Shown in pieces: positions 14,432-28,383 of a stretch of DNA of 33,759 nucleotides. The stretch covers positions 1-33,759 of the forward strand of contig JWZX01003293.1 of NCBI GenBank assembly GCA_001275005.1, in the 5' to 3' direction. The notes beneath the pieces are model-generated. The model did not search any database, was not told the DNA's origin, and was given only the letters and a program-made list of their open reading frames with translations. The position numbers were made by a program, and so were the translations under genes. The stretch comes from Chrysochromulina tobinii. Its lineage: Eukaryota; Haptophyta; Prymnesiales; Chrysochromulinaceae. How positions within the stretch are numbered: position 1 is the first letter of the stretch; the number at the start of each line of letters is the position of its first letter.

Positions 14432-15955
14432 TCAATCCGCGTCTCCCGCCTCGCCCACTGAGGAGTTGGAATGCGCCCCGGACGAACGGTCCGAGCTGGC
14501 TCCCCACAGGTCCGGCCTTATCTTTTCCACCTGCCCAATCTGCACCAGCATGGAGGAGAACCACGGCATCGCGAGATCGAACGGCTTGCAGGGTTGCAGG
14601 CGCTCGAAGCTGATCAGGCGAAGCCGCCATGGGTCGTCCCCCTCCTCGTCGAGCGCGACCACGCCCGCCTGCCGTCCAACTGCCTTGTGCGCCGCGACCT
14701 GGGCGGACGCGGTAATGAGGCGCGCGTCCGCGGCATTCGCGGATGCGCCGCGCACGGCGTCACCCGACTTGTGGTAGGCGACCCTTTGCGCGTGTACGAG
14801 CGGCCAGAGCTCGGAGAGTTGCGCCGCGACGCCCTCGGCCACGAAGACGTTCGCCTGACCGTACCGCACAACCACCGCCGCGAGGCGGGCCGCCTCAGCT
14901 GCGAGGTCGAAAGCACGCGCCATCTCGGGCACATAGACGGCGTGCAAGTCCCATCGCGCCCGAGATGGCGCCCCCTCGGGCCCGAGCAGTTGGACCTGCT
15001 CGTCTTCTGCGGGCCACATGCGCACAATGTCCCGGTACATGGCCGACGTCGCAGCGGTGAGCCAGCCGCAGCCCCCTCCGGCGACCTCATGTACATGGAG
15101 TGTACTGGTGGGCATGTGTGCCGCGACAGCGGCTGTGGTCTCGGCGCGCACCCGTGCAAAGAAGCGCGCGCTCTGATCAGCTGCCGTCCACGCGCCGGGC
15201 AGCTGCGTGATGGGGCTCTCATCATTCTCGAGCGCGTGAGGCAGCCCGATCGCCGTCAGGCTATAGTGCTCCCTCTCGAGGTGTATGGCAACGGCCGCGG
15301 CAGCGATCAGGGCCGCATGCCCGCCGATGACGTGAAGCACGTCGACGCCATCCTGGCGCAGCCGATTGGCCACCCTTCGCATCGGGTCCTCTTCGGGTGC
15401 ACACAGCCCACGCCGCACGCACTCCGCCGCGTCGGTCGGCACGACACGCGAGGCGCCGATCGGCGACCCTCCGCTCGCACAACACGCCGCCACCTGCTCT
15501 CGCCACTCCTGGCCTGCATGGAGGGCCACCGACTGGTTGAGCAGCATGCCCTCGAAGCCGTTGGTGTAGCACAGAAGCTTGATGCTGGGGTGCTTCTGAG
15601 CGTACTCGTCGATGAGCGCTTCGACTGTGGCCGCAAAGCCGAGATCCTCACATGGATCGCCAGCGGTTAGCACCGCCACGAGCCTGGGCGGCCGCGGCGT
15701 GTCGGCGCTGTTCTCGCGCGCTGTCGGCACAAGCGGCATCATGTATGAGGCATTCGGTGGTGGGCCCGCGCGAGCCGGTCGTAGCACCTCTGCAAGCAGC
15801 GCCGCAGCCAGTGCGGCCTCCGCCTCATCCTCATCCACGTCCTCAGCGATGCTGATGGATGATAGCATCGGCGCCTTCTTCTTCTTCCTGGCCTTTTTCG
15901 ACCTATCGGATTGGCTGCCCTTAGATCGGTCCGATTTGTCCCCTTTTGGCGCCAT
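14432..15955 (-). CDS. Phosphofructokinase-fold protein with degenerate catalytic motifs
   Basis: 507 residues, ATG at 15955 in a good context. A Lys/Ser-rich and acidic N-terminal extension (1-90) precedes a domain that follows the pyrophosphate-type 6-phosphofructokinase layout. Conserved blocks are GGSPIGASR (~162-170), DGVDVLHVIGG (~202-212), GAWTAADQSARFF (~254-266) and TLHVHEVAGGGCGWLTAATS (~285-304). The residues that normally bind and transfer phosphate are altered. The family GGD(D/G)T motif reads GGHAA (211-215), the PKTIDND loop reads PHALEND (239-245), and the MGR motif reads AGG (292-294). The Gly-rich N-terminal loop is also atypical (TAGDPCEDLG). The fold is therefore clear, but activity is doubtful; it may be a regulatory paralogue or bind another ligand. 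It is divergent from the RluA gene. Confidence 0.8.
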   Translation of the reverse strand: MAPKGDKSDRSKGSQSDRSKKARKKKKAPMLSSISIAEDVDEDEAEAALAAALLAEVLRPARAGPPPNASYMMPLVPTARENSADTPRPPRLVAVLTAGDPCEDLGFAATVEALIDEYAQKHPSIKLLCYTNGFEGMLLNQSVALHAGQEWREQVAACCASGGSPIGASRVVPTDAAECVRRGLCAPEEDPMRRVANRLRQDGVDVLHVIGGHAALIAAAAVAIHLEREHYSLTAIGLPHALENDESPITQLPGAWTAADQSARFFARVRAETTAAVAAHMPTSTLHVHEVAGGGCGWLTAATSAMYRDIVRMWPAEDEQVQLLGPEGAPSRARWDLHAVYVPEMARAFDLAAEAARLAAVVVRYGQANVFVAEGVAAQLSELWPLVHAQRVAYHKSGDAVRGASANAADARLITASAQVAAHKAVGRQAGVVALDEEGDDPWRLRLISFERLQPCKPFDLAMPWFSSMLVQIGQVEKIRPDLWGASSDRSSGAHSNSSVGEAGDAD

Positions 15956-16513
15956 CGTTTAGAGCGCCTGCGGTTGGCTCGCTCGCTCGCCGAAAAGAGG
16001 ACGCGAACACAGACACCATCGCCGTTTCAAATCTCTTCCAAAACTTCCAAAAGAGTCCAAGTCTCCAAGTCCGGAGAGGTGTCCCTCCTCCGCACGCTTT
16101 ACGGCGCGGTGCTTTCCATGTATTCGCCGACTCGAATAGTCCTTTCGTCCGGAGACCACGATATGGTGAGTGAGTTAAAACACAAATACTCAATTGAGTA
16201 CCGGTACGGTCCGCGGTCTCGTGACGCCACGGTGTATGCGTGTTTGCCACGACAGACGCGACAACCGGTGCCACGACACTGTTACTGCCCACTCAGAATG
16301 CGTGTTGTAGGCCGGAGTACAGTACCTCCAGCTCCACAAGTCCACATGATATAATTCCAAAACTCCCTCGCAAGACGCAACCCCACTCCCGATTCTCTCC
16401 CGAAGCCGCACCCCCCTTCCCTCTCACCGAGGTTCGCTCCCCCACGCACGCGCACAACGCACGAACTCACGCTCGTGTTAACGTTCACACAGACGCTCGC
16501 GGTCGCGCTCGAC
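15956..16513. promoter_or_regulatory. Divergent promoter region (PFK-fold / RluA genes)
   Basis: 558 bases between two divergent starts. It includes short direct repeats such as 'ccaaaacttccaaaagagtccaagtctccaagtcc' (around 16038-16073), lower GC than the genes and several C-rich/pyrimidine tracts near 16370-16440. No protein-coding frame is credible. No TATA-like box can be assigned with confidence. Confidence 0.4.
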
Positions 16514-18705: not shown

Positions 18706-21700
18706 ATGCTGTTCCTGAGACAGATGGAATACAGGCACCCTGGAGCGCGGGGTGCTCTGGCGGCGCGAAGGCAGCACCGGAGCGAGGGTGCTGCCCGGAG
18801 CGCTCGCAGCCACGTGACACCGATGGGAGCCACGGATCACATCCTCTTGAATTCGGATCCGCGGCCACCGGCAACCTGGCCGGCCACAGGAGCGGGCGGC
18901 AACACTGCCGTGGCTTCCAGCAGCAGCAGCGACAGCAGCAGCAGCATCGGCGGCGATGACGAAGAGTATCGCTGTCATTCGGAATCGGCTATCTCAGCGT
19001 TACACGTGCAGCGGCCCGCTGGGCGGCTGCGGGGCGGCGGCGCGAGCGTCCTACCGAGCGCGCTGCTGGAGGCTGCGGTACAGGCGCAGCAGCAGCAGGT
19101 GGCGCAGCAGCAGCAGCAGGTACAGGTGCAGCGGCAGAAGAGCAAGCAGCCCGCGGACCCAACCTTCAGAGGGGGGCCCAGAGTGAAGATACCGCCCTTC
19201 ATCATCGACCCTCACACGCCCTGGAAGGCGTTTTGGGACATCTGGGTAGCCTTGCTGATCGCGTACTCGGTGATCATGGTCCCACTGCGCGTGTGCTTTT
19301 CTCTGCGATCGTGCATCTTCTCCGCCGACTGGACGTGGGAGCTCTTCGTCGATTGCTGCTTCTTTGCCGACATCCTGCTGACCTTCCGGACGGCGCTCAT
19401 CCTCGACGACCCCGAGAAGCAGGAGCGCAAGGTAGTGACAGACGCGCGGAGGATCGCCTATCACTACATCAAGGGATGGTTTGTCATTGACGTGGTCTCC
19501 ACCATCCCCATTGACACGATCATTGAGCTGACACTATACGCGTCCACATCGGCCGCCGAGGCACAATCCCTTCGCACGTGCTCCTTCCTAACTGAGTCGC
19601 CCGAAGACTCGAACCTGCGCTCGACGATGATGCTGCGGGTCATGCGCCTCGTGCGTCTCGTGCGTCTTCTCAAGCTCTTTCGCACTCTCAAGCTAGGGCT
19701 CTTGTTTCGCCGGCTGGACGACGCGGTCAACATCAACCCCGCGGTGTTCAAGATGGCGCGCCTCCTAGCGTACATTCTCTTGCTCTCGCACCTGTCAGCA
19801 TGCTCCTGGTTTGGCATTTTCAAGCAGGTCGTCGAGGAGGGGAGCGAGCCCGTCGCCGACAACTGGATCGAGGCATACGCGAGCGCCCAGCTCGTGCCCA
19901 AGTTGGCCGACGCGATCCGCGGCGACATGCTCACCCAGTACACATCGGCCTTGTACTGGGCCTTCACCACACTCACCACGGTCGGCTACGGCGACATCGT
20001 GCCGAAGAATGTGTCGGAGATGTGGTTCGTCATTTTGATGGAGTTTGTGGGCCTGATCGTCTTCAGCATAGCCATCGCTCAGCTCACCAACATTATGGAC
20101 AACTTCAGCGCACAGAAGAAGCTCTTGAGCGCGCTCATGGCCGAGGTCACCCGGTACATGCGCGAGCGCAAAATGACGCCGCGAATGCAGCGTCGCGTGC
20201 TACGCTTCTACGAGTACTACCTGGAGCGCGTCTCCGTCTTCGACGTCAACTTGATGCTATCGGAGGTCTCTCAATCGCTTAAGTATGATATCTGCGAGGT
20301 GCGATCTGCGCGAGCTCGTGCTCGAGCTCTGATCTCCTCCGATGACCTCCCTGATGGCACCTGATGACCTTTGATTGGCCGCCTTCCTCAGGTGATGCTA
20401 CGCGAGCTCGTAGTCGACATGCCGTTGCTGCGGACCCGTGATGCCCAATTTGTCGCGAGGCTGGGCATGCAGCTGCAACCCTTTTTCGCCCTCGCACAAG
20501 AGTTCATCACGCGGCATGGCGTCGTTGGCCACGAAGTCTACTGGGTGCGCCAGGGGCGTGTGGAGCTGTGTATGGCCGCCAGCTTGACGATTCCCGGCGA
20601 CCTTGCGATGGCTGCGACTAGCCAGGCAATAAGCTCGGCAATCAGCTCGGCGCCCTCCACAGAAGACGCCGAACCTGGCGTCTCCTCCTGCACCGGCGCC
20701 AAACTCGCCACCGCTCGCGCCGCTGCCTCGATTGGAAGCGAACTACCTCTCTTTCTGAGCGACGGTGAGCACTTTGGCGAGGAGGTGCTACAGACTTCTG
20801 GCAATCGGATGCTCTTCGACGCTCGCGCCGTGCACTTCTCTCACTTGCTCTACGTGCACAAGCAGGCGAGTCACATGGCCTCTGACTGCCTCTGACTGCC
20901 TCTGATAGCCTCCAATTGCCTCGGATCGCCTCCAAGTGCTTCACACGTCGCTCTACGCCCACCTGCAGGTGCTCGAGTCTCTCAACGAGTCATACCCGAC
21001 ACTCATGGACGAGCTCAAAACAACGGGCCCTGTCAGCAGGCTGCAAGCGCAGGCCGCCGCTGCCGCCGACGCCCCCGCATCCACCGCCGCCACCGCCGCC
21101 AACGCCGCCAACGCCGCCGCCGCCGCCGGTGGAATCGGCGTGCCCTCAACAGCGTCTTCCTCAGCGCCCTCTGCTGCGCCTATAGCTCGCTCCCCGGCGC
21201 CGCCGCCAGCGCTGAGCGCCGAGATGAGCGCCGATCCGGCCACTTTGACCCACACGGAGCCGCCCCCACCAGAGTTCGCAGTCGTTGAGCCGTTGGGACG
21301 TGAGCAGAGCGCGACCGGCGCGGAGGTCTTGCCTAGTTTGGAAACCGCGCCAAAGAGTAGTTCAGTCGACAGGAGCCCATCCCCGAAGCTTCCGGTGCGA
21401 TCTCGCTCGTCGATCTCGTCCTTCTTTAGTCGGCCCAATCGAGCCAGCAAGCGCGGCAAGACGGACGGCAGGGGCAGCCACGAGGACGAGCATGCCAGGG
21501 GCAAGTATCCGCCACGTAGGAGTATTAGCGTAGGGCACGCGCTGAGCGAGCAAGCCACGAGGGAGCAGAACGAGCGTGATCTGAAGGCGATGGCGCTCGA
21601 CCGACTCTCGAAGCGTGGAAACCTCGGTGGCAGCGGAGGCGGCGGCGGTGGCGGCGGTACAGAGCTGCCAGGGCTCCTCGCAACTTTAACTTCTCCTTGT

Positions 21701-23945
21701 GCGCGCAAGGCATCCCACGGACGGGCCCGTGGCAACAGCAGGCACACTTTCCCGGAAAAGCTTGGGCGAGGAAAGACCGTGACCCTCTTTTCCGCACGCA
21801 TCAGGGTGCACACGCCACTGACATGCCCACTGCGTACCCTTGATTCGCCTTTGAGTGCCCTCTGATGACCCTGATGACCGTCTGACTGCCACGGATGGGC
21901 ACTCATTGGCCACGGATGGGCACTCATTCGCACTCATTGGCTTCGCGCAGGAGGACGAGATGCGCCAGCGCCAGGAGCTCGCTCGCAGCTGGGTCCTCCA
22001 TCCGGGCTCGCCTTACAAAAACGCGTGGGACGCGTGCCTCGCTGTGCTCGTCGTCTACTCTGTCGTGGTGGTGCCACTGCGCATCGGATTCAATGAGGAG
22101 GCAACTCCCCGTTCAGCTATATTTTGGTTTGAGGTGTCCATCGACTTCATCTTCATCATCGACATCGTGGTCAACTGCCGCACCGCGTACCTGACAGCTC
22201 ACGGCCTGCTGGAGAAGCGGCCGCGTCAGATCGCGCGACATTATCTGCTCTCGTGGTTCGTCGCCGATGTGGCTGCCTCCATCCCCGTCGACCTCATCCT
22301 GCTCGCAAACCAGGCATTCGCGGAGGGCGATGGCAGCGAGGAGCGCGACTCGTACCGGATGACGAAGCTGATTAAGGCGCTGCGCCTCTTGCGGCTGTTC
22401 CGGTTGGTCCGCCTCGTTAAGCTCGCCAGGCTAATCAAGATTGTGCAGGAGAAGCTCCAAATCAACCCGTTTGTGCTGCAGCTCGTCAAGCTCTGCTTTA
22501 AGATGTCGTTCTTAATTCATCTCTCCGCCTGCGCGTGGCACTGGTCCGCCGCCTTCGATCTACCCGAATATTCTCCATTCGCGTGCCAAGCACGTGCGGC
22601 GGCGGGGCAGCAAACCTGCTTCGACGAGCGCGTCACCATGGCCATGGCTACGTGGCTTCAGTACTTTGAGGCGAGCCACTTTTCGAACGGCGAGTGGCCG
22701 ACCACCCTCGAGGCCTACACCGCCTCGATCTACTGGGCGATGACCACAGTGGCGACGATCGGGTACGGCGACATCAAGTCTATTTCGAATCTCGAGCGCT
22801 TGATGAGCATAGTCATCATGCTCTCGGGCTCGATCGTCTTTGGCGTCGTGGTGGGCGGCATGAGCGACTCGTTAGAACAGATGAATTCGGTGCGCGCGCG
22901 CAGGACCCGGAAGAAGGACTATGTAAAGGCCATGCTGCGCGAGCGCAACGTGCCGCATGCGCTCATCATTCGAACGAAGCAATACTATGAGCGTTACTTG
23001 CTCGAGTGCGGGGACGTTGTGACGGAGCAGAAGATCCTGAGCGAGCTCCCGCCGCCGCTGCGCACCGAGTTGCTCCTCTGCCTCAACTTGCGCACTGTGG
23101 AGTCCATCGCCTTTTTCCACGGCCAAGACTCGACCTTTATCATCTCCGTGTGCAAGATGCTCAAGCCGTGTTACTTTGCACCGCTGGACTGGATCTTCAA
23201 GGAGGGCGACCTCGGGCTCGAGATGTACTTTGTGCAGCTGGGCTCCGTCGACGTGATCTGCTTCCTCGATGGCGAAGAGGTGATCCTGGAGACCCTCGAG
23301 GCAGGTGCGTACTTTGGCGAAGTGGCGGTGATGATGGACGACGTGCGACGCGAGGCGTCTGTACGCGCCGTCTCGTTCTGCTCGATGTTCTCGTTCACCA
23401 AGGAGAACCTCAACCGGCTCCTCCAGATGTACCCCGACGTGATGAAGAAGATGCAGACACAGATGGAGCGCCGGCTGCGCCAGTACCGGCTCAAGCGCTC
23501 CATCCAAAATGTCAAGTCGGCCAACGCCGTCAAGTCGGCCAACACCTTGTCCCCCGATACTGCTGCCAGTTTCTGTCAGCCGAGTGCCTTGCCTTCCGGC
23601 GAGCTTAGGCCGCAAGAGCCCGTACGCCGTCAAGGCTCCCTCGCGAAAGTGTTCCCGATCATGCGCTCGCCTTCGATGCAGATCCGGACGAGCACGACCT
23701 CGATAGGAGAGAAGGAGAAGCAGCCGTCGCTCGAGAAGCTCCTCAAGGTCCTCAACAACACCAACTCGATCGAGCAGATCGAAGAGAAAGTTCGCTCACG
23801 TTCCTCTTCGCATGAGGATATATTCGAGCCGAATTTGGATTGTTCTGTCGCTCCGGCCGAGGCAGGTGGCGCAGGAGCCGCAGGGACCGCGGGGGGCGAT
23901 GGGCAGCCCCCATCGGCCACGCTCGGAGCTCGAGGAGGAGGATGA
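18706..23945 (+). CDS. Tandem two-module voltage-gated K+/CNG-type channel, four exons
   Basis: Proposed exons are 18706-20298, 20392-20853, 20969-21805 and 21951-23945, about 1628 residues. Module 1 has six helices (~175-462). Its S2/S3 is of CNG/HCN/EAG type (CCFFADILLTFRTA), its S4 has Arg every third residue (LRVMRLVRLVRLLKLFRTLK), and its filter is TTVGYGD (~424-430). A C-linker and a weak cyclic-nucleotide-binding domain with a Ser/Ala-rich insert follow. A long low-complexity linker (~700-960) leads to module 2. Its S1 is VVYSVVVVPLRIGF, its S4 is LRLLRLFRLVRLVKLARLIK, and its filter is ATIGYGD (~1231-1237). Its binding domain is more complete (GAYFGEVAVMMDD...RREASVRAV). GYGD filters indicate K+ selectivity. 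The start is uncertain: ATGs at 18724 and 18823 are also in frame. The fusion rests on the intron at 21806-21950; if that is wrong there are two adjacent genes, splitting near 21850. Confidence 0.7.
19080..19133. repeat. CAG-rich tract encoding polyglutamine
   Basis: Interrupted cag repeats in channel exon 1, giving a Gln-rich stretch (AQQQQVAQQQQQVQVQRQ) in the cytoplasmic N terminus. Confidence 0.9.
20299..20391 (+). other. Channel intron 1
   Basis: Donor GAG/GTGCGATCT and acceptor TTCCTCAG/GTGATGCTA, both phase 0, 93 nt. The first ~30 bases of the intron (GTGCGATCTGCGCGAGCTCG) resemble the first bases of exon 2 (GTGATGCTACGCGAGCTCGT). The remainder is a degenerate repeat of CTCCGATGACCTCCCTGATGGC type. 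The joined protein reads YDICE/VMLRELVVDMPLL, the expected C-linker-to-CNBD transition. Confidence 0.85.
20854..20968 (+). other. Channel intron 2 with 10-bp repeats
   Basis: Donor CTAC/GTGCACAAG and acceptor CACCTGCAG/GTGCTCGAG, phase 0, 115 nt. The body holds six successive 10-base units of the type GCCTCTGACT, GCCTCTGATA, GCCTCCAATT, GCCTCGGATC, GCCTCCAAGT (about 20878-20938). Splicing gives HFSHLLY/VLESLNESYPTLMDEL, which matches the end of a cyclic-nucleotide-binding domain. Confidence 0.85.
21056..21128. repeat. GCC-rich tract encoding polyalanine
   Basis: Imperfect gcc/acc repeats in channel exon 3, translated as Ala/Thr/Asn-rich sequence in the linker between the two channel modules. 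Confidence 0.9.
21806..21950 (+). other. Proposed channel intron 3, joining the two modules
   Basis: Donor ATCAGG/GTGCACACG and acceptor GGCTTCGCGCAG/GAGGACGAG, phase 0 on both sides, 145 nt. The body (GAGTGCCCTCTGATGACCCT, then GATGACCGTCTGACTGCC, then two ACGGATGGGCACTCATTGG-like units) is the same short-repeat type as the certain introns of this window. The frame upstream would otherwise stop at 21863. The exact donor could instead be GTGACCCTC at about 21779. Confidence 0.6.
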
Positions 23946-24897
23946 CGTGCCATCGGGGTGGGTCCGAAATCCTGACGGCAGCCTCACCAAGGCCGCCTGA
24001 TCTTCATCGAACCGATTCACACGGCGGCTGATGCAGCTGATGTATGCGTCTGGCAGCACAGTGCACACATGTGGTGCATTGCATTCTGCAGCGCCCTCAA
24101 CAGCCGTTCCTCTTCTCTGTTGGGTTCTTAGAGTCGAGTATATCAGGTCGAGTGTCAGAGATCCATGACGCGCTTGAGACGCATGTTGAGACGTCTTGAC
24201 AGTCTCAGCCCGCAGGTCCGTCCTGCATGCGTGTGCAAGCGCATGTTATGGCAGAAAATGCGTGACACAATGAAGACAAACGTGTTCGTATGTAAGTCTC
24301 GTCTGTGGTAGTATTAAACCTTCGAAGCGTTGGATTCGAAAGCGATAATCGATCGACAGGTGCGAGGCTGGGTGTCTATGTGGGAAGTCTGTGGGCGGCG
24401 AGGTCCGATGACCCGGACGCCCGTCGCGTCCCGTCACGGTATGGGCGACTCCGCCCCGCCACAGCGAGAGCCGAGCACCGGTCGAAGCACCGGAGTCGCC
24501 CGCAGCAGGGTCTTGAGCGTCTCGAGAAGTCTCGAGTCTACGCCTCCCATCGAGCGTGGGCGCGACGGCCCTCCGGGCGCGCGGCTAACGCGGCAAACAA
24601 CGGCCCGGCTGCCGGCGTGGCTGTCGGGTCGTGCCGAGATACACTCGCCCAGACGGGAGCAGACGTACGAACACTCACCTCACCCGGCTCATTATCAACC
24701 ACCTCAGATGGCACCACCTTTCCCCACAAGGAAGACACGTGTGCAGAAATGCGTGCAGAATCCGTGGCAGCACGTCTGCACATGCCCGCGCGCCCGCCGC
24801 TCACGACACAGCTGGCTCCTCTGTGTCGTACCTGGTGAAGGACGCCATCAGACGCCATCAGACGCCATCAGACGTCATCAGACGCAATCAGACGCAA
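23946..24897. other. Convergent intergenic region, channel to GALE
   Basis: About 950 bases. It includes AT-richer DNA (24000-24330) and 'gtctcgagaagtctcgagtct' (around 24519-24539), a small direct and partly inverted repeat. Just after the channel stop, another frame reads EEEDDVPSGWVRNPDGSLTK to a stop at 24000. No other coding or RNA feature is supported. Confidence 0.45.
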
Positions 24898-24909
24898 TCA
24901 GACGCAATC
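24841..24909. repeat. 10-bp minisatellite, seven copies, overlapping the GALE stop codon
   Basis: Units gacgccatca (x3), gacgtcatca, gacgcaatca (x2) and gacgcaatcg. On the minus strand the GALE end GAT TGC GTC TGA (24909-24898) lies inside the array; the unit there is GATTGCGTCT. The unit resembles the intron repeats of this window (GATGGC + TCTGA). Confidence 0.95.
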
Positions 24910-26034
24910 GGCTAGCTCCTCGGGGTCGTACCCGTTGGGATTTTGGCTGATCCATTTCCACGAGTCTGCACACATGTCTTCCAAGTTGAGCTCCGCCTTC
25001 CAGCCGAGCTCGACCTCCGCCTTCTTGGGCAGGCCGTAGCACACAGCCACGTCACCTGATGATATGAAACACTCAGACGGGATCAGATGGCAAGCAGAGG
25101 CAGCCAGAGGGCAGTCAGAGGCCCATCCGAGCGCCATCAGAGGGTCATCTGTCACACCAGGTCGGCGGTCGGCCATGACGTGCTTGAGTTCTTTCCCACA
25201 GGCCTTCGAGTAGGCAGCGAGCATCTCGAGCACAGAGTTGCCGTTGCCGGTGCCCAGGTTGTACGTGGCGCAGCCCGGGTTTGTCTCGACCTTCTTGAGA
25301 GCGGCAAGGTGCCCTTTTGCGAGGTCGACGACGTGGATGTAGTCGCGCACGCCCGTGCCGTCCTTCGTGGGGTAGTCTGACCCGTAGACGGTGAGGTGCG
25401 GGCGCTTGCCCACGGCGACCTGCTGGATGTAAGGCATCAGGTTGTTTGGGATTCCCTTCGGGTTCTCGCCGATCTGGCCGCTCTTGTGCGCGCCTACCGG
25501 ATTGAAGTAGCGCAGCAGGATAACGTTCCACGATTTGTCGCTCTCGTACACGTCCTTGAGGATGTACTCGATGAAGAGCTTCGTGCGCCCGTACGGGTTG
25601 GTGGCCGAGGTGGGGAAATCTTCGGTGACCGGCACCGAAGCCGGGTCGCCGTACACCGTCGCCGATGACGAGAACACGATGTTCTTGCAGCCGCCCGCAC
25701 CCATTGCCTTGAGCAGGTTGACGGTGCCGGTGATGTTGTTCTCGTAGTAGAAGAGCGGCTTGGCGACCGACTCGCCGACTGCCTTGAGGCCTGCAAAGTG
25801 GATCACCGCGTCGAACTTGGTGCTGGCGAACAGCACCTCCATGCCCGGCGCGTCCAGCAGGTCGATCTTGTGCAGCTTGATCTCCTTGCCGGAGAGCTTC
25901 ATCACCCGGTTGAGGGCCTCCTCGCTCGCATTGTACATGTTGTCCATGACCTCGACCTCATGGCCAGCCTCGAGTATCTCGAGCGCCGTGTGCGAGCCGA
26001 TGTACCCAGCACCGCCGGTCAGCAGGACTTTCAT
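24898..26034 (-). CDS. GALE: UDP-glucose 4-epimerase, two exons
   Basis: Converts UDP-glucose to UDP-galactose in the Leloir pathway, normally cytosolic. Exon 1 is 26034-25158 and exon 2 is 25055-24898, giving 344 residues, the usual length. The start is MKVLLTGGAGYIGSH with the Rossmann NAD motif GGAGYIG (7-13). The catalytic set is present: SSSATVYG (122-129) with the active-site Ser, and Tyr148/Lys152 in NPYGRTK. RYFNPVGAH and GTGVRDYIHVVDLAKGH are further family blocks. Splicing joins RRPG to DVAVCYG, exactly the conserved RRPGDVA motif. Without splicing there is a 34-residue insert that has no equivalent in the family. The last residues (DCV) come from a 10-bp minisatellite. No targeting peptide is seen. 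It supplies sugar nucleotides for wall, scale or glycolipid galactose. Confidence 0.95.
   Translation of the reverse strand: MKVLLTGGAGYIGSHTALEILEAGHEVEVMDNMYNASEEALNRVMKLSGKEIKLHKIDLLDAPGMEVLFASTKFDAVIHFAGLKAVGESVAKPLFYYENNITGTVNLLKAMGAGGCKNIVFSSSATVYGDPASVPVTEDFPTSATNPYGRTKLFIEYILKDVYESDKSWNVILLRYFNPVGAHKSGQIGENPKGIPNNLMPYIQQVAVGKRPHLTVYGSDYPTKDGTGVRDYIHVVDLAKGHLAALKKVETNPGCATYNLGTGNGNSVLEMLAAYSKACGKELKHVMADRRPGVTDDPLMALGWASDCPLAASACHLIPSECFISSGDVAVCYGLPKKAEVELGWKAELNLEDMCADSWKWISQNPNGYDPEELADCV
25056..25157 (-). other. GALE intron, 102 nt, in frame and free of stops
   Basis: Donor CCTG/GTGTGACAG and acceptor CATATCATCAG/GTGACGTGG, phase 1. The length is a multiple of three with no stop codon, so it reads through as 34 residues. 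The body is a run of 10-11 base units (GATGACCCTCT, GATGGCGCTCG, GATGGGCCTCT, GACTGCCCTCT, GGCTGCCTCT). The exact family motif across the splice point proves the intron. Confidence 0.92.
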
Positions 26035-26166
26035 TTTTGACGCGGCGTCGCGCGCGTGAGAGCGTGCGCAAAGATCATGGCGTGATGTGACAAATTCCTA
26101 ATTTGTGAAATCTTATCGCAGTGGGGAATGTCGACGTCGACCAAGTTGTGACCGTGCGATTTGCAC

Positions 26167-27030: not shown

Positions 27031-27287
27031 CCTAAGAAGACGGGTCCTTCGAGCGCGCGTGCGTTCCTTACGCGGCCCACAGTGCGAGGGCAAGTGTGAA
27101 TTGGTGGGGAGAGAAATCAAGTCAAGTCAAGTCAAGTCATTCTTTGTCTTTTGTATCGCCCGCCCTAAATCGGTTGCGTCGCCTTCTGTCGTCTTGATGC
27201 CGACACTGGCCACCTCGACAATCTCCGCCTGCATCCGAATCGTCGGACCTTCTCTGACAACTCGTCGGGCTTCCCAACCACACAACC
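27031..27287. promoter_or_regulatory. Shared promoter region of two mitochondrial carriers
   Basis: 257 bases between divergent ATGs. It contains four tandem tcaag units (27117-27136) followed by tca, in an otherwise mixed sequence. Both genes are carriers, so co-regulation is plausible but not shown. Confidence 0.45.
27117..27139. repeat. tcaag pentamer repeat
   Basis: Four tandem copies of tcaag plus tca, located midway between the divergent carrier genes. Confidence 0.95.
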
Positions 27288-28383
27288 ATGGCTCCGATGG
27301 GTGGCGGGTGCGCCACAGCACCGCGCAGCACACGGCGGCCCGCACCCGACGCAGGCCTGTGCTCGCGAGGCTCGTGTATCGCCGTTTCGCGCCGCGCGAG
27401 GCCATTCCGACGCCCATGCGGCTCATGCACACCTGACGCAATCCCGTGTGTCCGACTCGCGCAGCGCTGACACTGGCTCCGGCCTCGCGGGCATCGCGAA
27501 AAAGTTCTGCCTCACCGGTGCATCGTCGATGCTCGCCGAGGGCGCCACCTTCCCGATCGACATCACCAAGACGCGTCTGCAGCTCCAGGGCCAGGCCGAC
27601 TTCACCGGCACAAAGTTTGGCTTCGGCGGCATGATGGCCAACATCCTCAAGACCGAGGGCGTCGTTGGCCTGTACGCGGGCGTCACGCCAGCGATCGCGC
27701 GCCACATCCCGTACACGGGCTTCCGCGCCATCGGATACGAATACATCCGCGCCTTTTTTTGCGGCGACAAGCCCAAGGACCAGGCGCCGCTCCTCGCCAA
27801 GATGGCGGCCGGCATGTCGGCGGGCGCCATCGGGCAGGCGATCGCGGTGCCGTGCGACCTGATCAAGGTGCGCATGCAGTCGGATGGCCGCCTCGTCGCC
27901 GCGAAGAAGCTCGACAAGCCGCGCTACACGGGCCTCTTCGACGCGTTCGCAAAGATCCAGGCGGCCGAGGGCATTGGCGGGTTCTATGCGGGCTGCTGGC
28001 CGGCCATCCAGCGCGCGGCGCTGGTCAACCTGGGCGAGCTCACGACGTACGACACAGCCAAGAAGGCCATCGTGCCGATCACGGGCGACAACCTCCTCTG
28101 CCACCTCTCCTCCGCCATCTGCTCGGGCTTCGTCGCCTCCCTCTGCTCCACGCCTGCTGACGTGGCCAAGAGCCGTATCATGTCGCAGACCAAGCTGCCC
28201 GACGGCACGTTCCCGTACAACGGCACGCTCGATTGCTGGAAAAAGGTGGTGGCGAGCGAGGGCCCGATGGCGCTCTACAAGGGCTTCATTCCCGGCTGGC
28301 TGCGCCTCGGGCCGTGGCAGCTCGTCTTCTGGGTGTCGTACGAGCAGCTTCGCATCCTCACCGGCATCGGCGGCTTCAAGTAA
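27288..28383 (+). CDS. UCP/dicarboxylate-type mitochondrial carrier, two exons
   Basis: An inner mitochondrial membrane carrier. Proposed exon 1 is 27288-27307 (ATGGCTCCGATGGGTGGCGG) and exon 2 is 27465-28383, giving 312 residues. That is the normal carrier length and starts MAPMGGGADTGSGLAGIAKK. The three signatures are FPIDITKTRLQ, VPCDLIKVRMQ and TPADVAKSRIM. Helix sequences such as RHIPYTGFRAIGYEYIR and RAALVNLGELTTYDTAKKAI resemble uncoupling proteins and plant PUMPs, which also have 'R.A.VN..EL..YD..K'. The C terminus is FWVSYEQLRILTGIGGF. UCP-type carriers exchange dicarboxylates/amino acids and, in some species, leak protons. The substrate here is not determined. The first exon is short and its choice is based on frame and splice signals, so it is less certain than the rest. 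Confidence 0.88.
27308..27464 (+). other. Proposed intron of the UCP-like gene
   Basis: Donor GGCGG/GTGCGCCAC at 27308 and acceptor GACTCGCGCAG/CGCTGACAC ending 27464, 157 nt, phase 2. It restores a single frame from a good-context ATG (CAACCATGGC) to the carrier domain. The unspliced frame upstream of the domain has no ATG and an unlikely His/Ala-rich sequence. Confidence 0.6.

What the first reader, a model, noticed from the sequence alone, without database searches (positions are those of the whole stretch)
18706..23945. A pseudo-dimeric 2 x (6TM + cyclic-nucleotide domain) K+ channel gene
Two full channel modules, each with S1-S6, an Arg-rich S4, a GYGD filter and a C-terminal binding domain, sit in the same direction. 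They are separated by 145 bases that look like an intron of this genome, with phase-0 ends. Module 2 has no convincing start of its own. Known single-chain tandem channels include four-repeat CNGK and two-repeat TPC types. A two-repeat CNG/EAG-type K+ channel would be an unusual intermediate in which two chains would build one pore.
Basis: partly seen in the sequence, partly recalled or inferred. Interest (0 to 1): 0.8.

Follow-up and report, generated by a model that had tools for sequence, protein, structure and literature searches.

The report
Two-repeat potassium channel gene in alga
One gene of a haptophyte alga most likely encodes two complete potassium-channel modules in a single protein chain, so that two chains would make one channel; such two-repeat channels were already described in other protists, and this one adds a haptophyte.

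Summary
Window 18706-23945 reads as one four-exon gene of Chrysochromulina tobinii: a 1632-aa chain with two 6TM + C-linker + cyclic-nucleotide-binding-domain (CNBD) modules and GYGD filters. The 145-base spacer 21806-21950 looks like a phase-0 GT-AG intron. Best evidence: three unnamed metagenome proteins (P0121-P0123) carry both modules in one chain and align through the junction. The public model P0018 already joins the modules, but starts inside S1 and skips CNBD1.

[quoted passage not shown] What is added is a haptophyte, outside the SAR supergroup of that report. In its family, repeat-2 CNBDs keep the phosphate-binding Arg and repeat-1 CNBDs have Met there.

Dimer assembly, K+ selectivity and ligand gating are inferred. 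I saw no transcript of this gene. Whether the tandem shares its origin with the SAR ones is unresolved.

The parts
18706..20298 (+). Exon 1: N-terminal region, repeat 1 S1-S6 and start of the C-linker (S1 at 19231-19293)
   Evidence: Ion_trans E 5.5e-30; the start MLFL.QMEYRHPGARG is shared by relatives P0159 and P0160; coordinates
19627..19707 (+). S4 of repeat 1, 7 Lys/Arg
19975..19995 (+). Selectivity filter of repeat 1, TTVGYGD
20299..20391 (+). Intron 1, 93 bases, GT-AG, phase 0
   Evidence: P0121 reads straight through (DLCEVIFREM)
20392..20865 (+). Exon 2: most of CNBD1, with an insertion of about 70 residues absent from P0121-P0123
20767..20832 (+). Phosphate-binding cassette of CNBD1, HFGEEVL...NRMLFDARAV; Met at the position of the phosphate-contacting Arg
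   Evidence: alignment; that this Arg contacts the ligand is recalled
20866..20968 (+). Intron 2, 103 bases, GC-AG, phase 0
   Evidence: P0121 reads straight through (LLYIPKQALEELNNTYPTL)
20969..21805 (+). Exon 3: last helix of CNBD1 and a long low-complexity linker to repeat 2
   Evidence: the linker is 31% identical to P0121
21806..21950 (+). Intron 3, 145 bases, GT-AG, phase 0, between the repeats
   Evidence: P0121-P0123 are continuous here
21951..23945 (+). Exon 4: repeat 2 S1-S6, C-linker, CNBD2 and C-terminal tail (S1 at 22023-22085)
   Evidence: Ion_trans 1.1e-26 and cNMP_binding 4e-16
22359..22436 (+). S4 of repeat 2, 8 Lys/Arg
22752..22772 (+). Selectivity filter of repeat 2, ATIGYGD
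23307..23372 (+). Phosphate-binding cassette of CNBD2, YFGEVAVMMDDVRREASVRAV; Arg kept, Glu where HCN has Thr

Best explanation
The region is a single spliced gene for a two-repeat (2 x 6TM-CNBD) potassium-channel subunit of the haptophyte Chrysochromulina tobinii. Shown from sequence: both modules are complete, relatives have them joined in one chain, and the two repeats belong to separate lineages. Inferred: two chains assemble into one fourfold pore with alternating repeat-1 and repeat-2 quarters; the GYGD filters make it K+-selective; the four S4 helices sense voltage; and, if a cyclic nucleotide acts at all, it acts through the two repeat-2 CNBDs, while the repeat-1 CNBDs keep a structural place in the gating ring. 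Opening would hyperpolarise the cell or set its resting potential. The confidence given is for one gene and one two-repeat chain; I put the dimeric K+ channel at about 0.75 and ligand sensing by CNBD2 at about 0.5.
For: P0121 (1677 aa), P0122 (1488 aa) and P0123 (1265 aa) are single chains with both modules (P0123 lacks the first part of repeat 1). P0121 aligns through all three splice junctions, P0122 and P0123 likewise at the repeat junction. P0121 identity to the window: 58% in repeat 1 and 65% in repeat 2 (S1 to C-linker), 56% in CNBD1, 80% in CNBD2. The spacer has intron ends, phase and composition, and no start of module 2 is shared with relatives. The public model P0018 joins both modules; the genome paper says its MAKER2 models used RNA-seq among other evidence (PMC4580454, passages), but I did not see which evidence this gene had. 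In the tree, repeat 1 and repeat 2 of the family each form a clade with 100/100 support. Both modules match HCN, KCNH, CNG and plant K+ channels of known structure (best E 1.1e-53 for module 2, 1.2e-32 for exon 1). In the three family members aligned (window, P0121, P0122) the PBC Arg before the HCN Thr position is present in repeat 2 (RREAS) and is Met in repeat 1.
Against: I saw no transcript of this gene. P0018 joins 20298 to 21951 and drops CNBD1, so it is either a mis-model or a splice form. P0121-P0123 are predicted proteins from unnamed metagenome contigs whose DNA I could not fetch (viral-contig scans found nothing), so their organism and their freedom from introns are not shown. One search listed no two-repeat chain from a named haptophyte, though that search holds transcriptome proteins (only the 7989 candidates sharing most words were scored). 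Sixteen close relatives have an ATG just upstream of the acceptor. CNBD2 has Glu where HCN has Thr. Dimer assembly, selectivity and gating are untested.
Confidence: 0.82

Rival explanations
1. Two neighbouring single-module channel genes, each with its own transcript, perhaps assembling as a heteromer.
For: Without the splice, the module-1 frame stops at 21863-21865 and an ATG lies at 21960; other single-module CNBD channel frames exist in this genome.
Against: The gap from that stop to that ATG is 94 bases. Single-chain relatives P0121-P0123 exist. The ATG is not conserved (16 of 17 relatives read Ile). The spacer has intron ends and composition.
Confidence: 0.07
2. The two-repeat chain is real, but the main product lacks CNBD1 as in the public model P0018 (20298 joined to 21951), giving a 2 x 6TM channel with one CNBD per chain.
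For: P0018, an 881-aa deposited model; dinoflagellate tandem channels with reduced CNBDs are reported (PMC7576140, passages).
Against: P0018 starts inside S1 and ends in a short tail not in the relatives. CNBD1 is 56% identical to P0121 (70 of 126 aligned residues), and the exon joins fall at homologous positions.
Confidence: 0.1
3. It is a two-repeat chain, but both CNBDs are ligand-blind and the channel is purely voltage-gated, as KCNH channels are.
For: CNBD1 lacks the PBC Arg; CNBD2 has RREAS where HCN has RRTAS.
Against: CNBD2 keeps FGE and the Arg, is above the Pfam cut-off and is 80% identical to that of P0121.
Confidence: 0.35

Closest known systems
[quoted passage not shown] 2020, PMC7576140)
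   Same: 2 x (6TM + C-linker + CNBD) in one chain, K+ type filters, diverged repeats that form their own clades
   Different: From a haptophyte, outside SAR; no supported tie to the SAR-type repeats, but none excluded; long linker between repeats; in this family repeat-2 CNBD keeps the phosphate Arg and repeat-1 CNBD does not
CNGK channels of animals and choanoflagellates (PMC4749565, passages)
   Same: CNBD-channel repeats chained in one protein with GYG/GFG filters; in sea urchin CNGK only the third CNBD is reported to gate
   Different: Four repeats, not two
HCN / KCNH / CNG channels (solved structures)
   Same: Same 6TM + C-linker + CNBD module
   Different: One repeat per chain, four chains per pore (recalled)
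Two-pore channels (TPC; recalled, and named as two-repeat 6TM tandems in PMC7576140)
   Same: Two 6TM repeats per chain
   Different: No CNBD and no GYGD K+ filter (recalled)

Membership tests
Two-repeat tandem CNBD-channels | Two 6TM-CNBD repeats in one polypeptide | tested here: met
   Gene model and single-chain relatives P0121-P0123; no transcript seen
Two-repeat tandem CNBD-channels | TVGY/FG-type filter in both repeats | tested here: met
   TTVGYGD and ATIGYGD
Two-repeat tandem CNBD-channels | Repeats diverged to about 30% identity, first and second repeats in separate clades | tested here: met
   32% between repeats over query residues 14-374; clades of three rows each at 100/100
Two-repeat tandem CNBD-channels | Common descent with the SAR tandem channels | tested here: inconclusive
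   AU: repeat 1 with seven SAR-type first repeats p 0.55; repeat 2 with five second repeats p 0.132, lnL 24 lower
Two-repeat tandem CNBD-channels | Short S4-S5 linker (under ten residues) | tested here: inconclusive
   By alignment only: no insertion in the S4-S5 stretch against the other rows; linker length was not measured on a structure
CNGK | Four repeats in one chain | tested here: not met
   Two repeats
HCN | CIGYG filter and S/T in the middle of S4 | tested here: not met
   TVGYGD/TIGYGD; Lys or Arg where HCN row P0139 has Ser
KCNH (EAG) | N-terminal PAS domain (recalled) | tested here: not met
   No PAS match in the exon-1 frame at E 0.001
TPC | Two 6TM repeats without CNBD (recalled) | tested here: not met
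   CNBD2 above the Pfam cut-off, CNBD1 just under it
Functional K+ channel | K+-selective current, dimer of chains | not testable with these tools
   Needs expression and structure

The most novel reading that the evidence does not exclude
Haptophytes built a two-repeat CNBD K+ channel independently of SAR by fusing two different channel genes (not by internal duplication), giving a twofold-symmetric channel in which only the two repeat-2 CNBDs sense a ligand.
Probability: 0.3. Interest if true: 0.5.

Novelty: new member of a known kind. Interest (0 to 1): 0.36.

Why it matters
It extends single-chain two-repeat CNBD channels to a haptophyte, which bears on how often channel repeats were chained in evolution. 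It also gives a natural candidate for a twofold-symmetric channel in which the role of two versus four binding domains could be measured. The public model of this gene looks incomplete and could be corrected.

Tried and rejected
Two separate genes: rejected on the single-chain relatives. Internal duplication of one module within this family: weakly rejected (AU p 0.044; the group was named after the tree was seen). A shared tandem origin with SAR-type tandems: not rejected for repeat 1 (p 0.55) nor for repeat 2 (p 0.132 with lnL 24 lower), so left open. In one search four AU tests did not finish: the repeat-1 test, run again; a wider repeat-2 set, replaced by the narrower one; and repeat 1 and repeat 2 with the oomycete rows, not run again. 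Scans of viral contigs for DNA of relatives found nothing. I compared by eye the longest-contig lengths of close module-1 and module-2 relatives to look for shared contigs: none equal apart from P0018, which is this gene; uninformative. No structure prediction was run: the chain exceeds the tool's length limit, and inter-chain assembly would not be tested.

Rows left out of the tree: P0018 (same gene), P0123 and P0134 (repeat 1 truncated), P0130, and the partial or split two-repeat rows P0023, P0032, P0033, P0035. The 35 single-module rows were chosen by hand; several are fragments or single exons (for example P0027 and three rows of this genome), so 'single' is not proved for them.

Full report
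Where it is. The window is contig C2134 of the held genome (53.2 Mb, 2253 contigs). A deposited protein, P0018, lies on a contig of the same length (33,759 bases) and is named 'cation channel family protein [Chrysochromulina tobinii]'. The genome paper gives a compact 59 Mb genome with on average one intron per gene (PMC4580454, passages).

Gene model. I read four exons: 18706-20298, 20392-20865, 20969-21805 and 21951-23945, all joined in phase 0, giving 1632 aa. Introns are 93, 103 and 145 bases; the second has GC-AG ends. Each junction is supported by homology: P0121 reads continuously through all three. The start MLFL is shared by relatives P0159 and P0160.

Modules. The two modules match Ion_trans (5.5e-30 and 1.1e-26), with S4 segments of 7 and 8 Lys/Arg and GYGD filters. 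CNBD2 matches cNMP_binding at 4e-16. CNBD1 is just under the curated cut-off (26.5 against 27.5 bits) and carries an insertion of about 70 residues; the same domain of P0121, without the insertion, scores 44.6. Both modules match HCN, KCNH, CNG and plant K+ channel structures.

One gene or two. The main evidence is comparative. Of the 38 proteins listed with the whole chain as query (7989 candidates scored), P0121-P0135 (15) show two repeats by a profile built here from eight repeats, two of them the window's (in P0134 the first is partial). P0121-P0123 belong to the same family as the window: P0121 is 58% and 65% identical in the two membrane-plus-C-linker parts and 31% in the linker. Close relatives of module 2 do not share its only early ATG: 16 of 17 read Ile there. 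These 16 are near-copies and begin at another ATG upstream, so this is supporting evidence only. The spacer has the TGA[CT]-rich make-up of the other two introns. The public model P0018 also joins the modules, but it begins inside S1 and skips CNBD1.

Against it. I saw no transcript of this gene. The single-chain relatives are predicted proteins on unnamed metagenome contigs, and I could not read their DNA. No two-repeat chain from a named haptophyte was listed, so the haptophyte claim rests on this genome; P0018, shorter than that search's length limit, is the same gene.

What it is related to. In a tree of 67 rows (32 repeats of 16 two-repeat proteins, 35 single modules, 13 of them from this genome), repeat 1 of the family and repeat 2 of the family are separate 100/100 clades and are not sisters. 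Repeat 2 sits with P0027, a single-module fragment (99/89); that P0027 is not itself half of a tandem gene is not shown. Holding repeats 1 and 2 together is weakly rejected (p 0.044). Joining repeat 1 to seven SAR-type first repeats is not rejected (p 0.55); joining repeat 2 to five second repeats is not rejected either (p 0.132, lnL 24 lower). So one origin or several remains open. 'SAR-type' is a convenience: P0126, P0128, P0130, P0132 and P0133 bear names of oomycete species (that these are oomycetes is recalled); P0135 is a Paraphysomonas transcriptome entry by its cut header; P0124 is MMETSP0115 (its identity as a bicosoecid is recalled); others are unnamed metagenome rows. No dinoflagellate tandem was in my tree.

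Mechanism. From established knowledge of CNBD channels, four modules surround one pore, so a two-repeat chain should work as a dimer. In the three family members aligned, the PBC Arg that precedes the HCN Thr position is kept in repeat 2 (RREAS) and is Met in repeat 1; the window's repeat 1 has an Arg, and its relatives a Lys, one place earlier. I infer that ligand sensing, if any, is by CNBD2. There is a precedent for chained CNBDs of which only one works: the sea urchin CNGK channel is reported to be gated through its third CNBD only (PMC4749565, passages). CNBD2 has Glu where HCN has Thr, so binding is uncertain.

What was known. The 2020 paper states that it reports two-repeat tandem CNBD-channels for the first time, in oomycetes and dinoflagellates, building on long Prorocentrum transcripts of the authors' earlier work, and it places all tandem groups in SAR (PMC7576140; abstract, section 6, section 13 part 1 and passages seen). 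Its four mentions of haptophytes in the main text concern CNBD-channels that cluster with HCN, not tandem ones; its supplements were not seen. Among the titles listed by my paper searches (capped lists, open-licence PMC papers only) I saw none on a haptophyte two-repeat channel. The finding is therefore a new member, in a lineage not named there, of a known kind.

Limits. No transcript, no DNA of the single-chain relatives, no functional data.

Noticed in passing
L045 (G000:C2242:60000-68500, minus strand), L049 (C2155:35900-45000), L050 (C560:3500-13000): Apparent four-repeat CNBD-type channels in the same genome. In C2242 most of it lies in one 2323-aa frame; in C2155 and C560 the pieces lie in several frames and their joining is assumed. 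Filters are odd: repeats 1 and 2 G(L/F)GD; the third PIGD in C2242 and C2155 (not found in C560); the fourth GLGD or GSGD. PMC7576140 describes four-repeat CNGK channels from animals and choanoflagellates.
   Followed up: partly
window 23900-24001: The 8 of the 16 relatives P0002-P0017 whose ends I printed finish in GWVRNPDGSLTKAA; the window encodes a similar end in another frame past its stop at 23945, and P0001 (96%) has the window's shorter end: a frame difference at the C-terminus.
   Followed up: partly
window 20866-20968: GC-AG intron supported by homology on both sides.
   Followed up: yes
P0018 (public protein model): The deposited model starts inside S1 of repeat 1 and skips CNBD1, so it probably needs correction.
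   Followed up: yes
window 14435-15958 (-), 24901-26097 (-), 27169-28380 (+): Neighbouring frames match phosphofructokinase, a GDP-mannose 4,6-dehydratase type epimerase, and mitochondrial carrier.
   Followed up: no
P0153 (1700 aa, metagenome): Shows three GYG/GFG-type filters and several partial module matches, perhaps a chain of three or four repeats.
   Followed up: no
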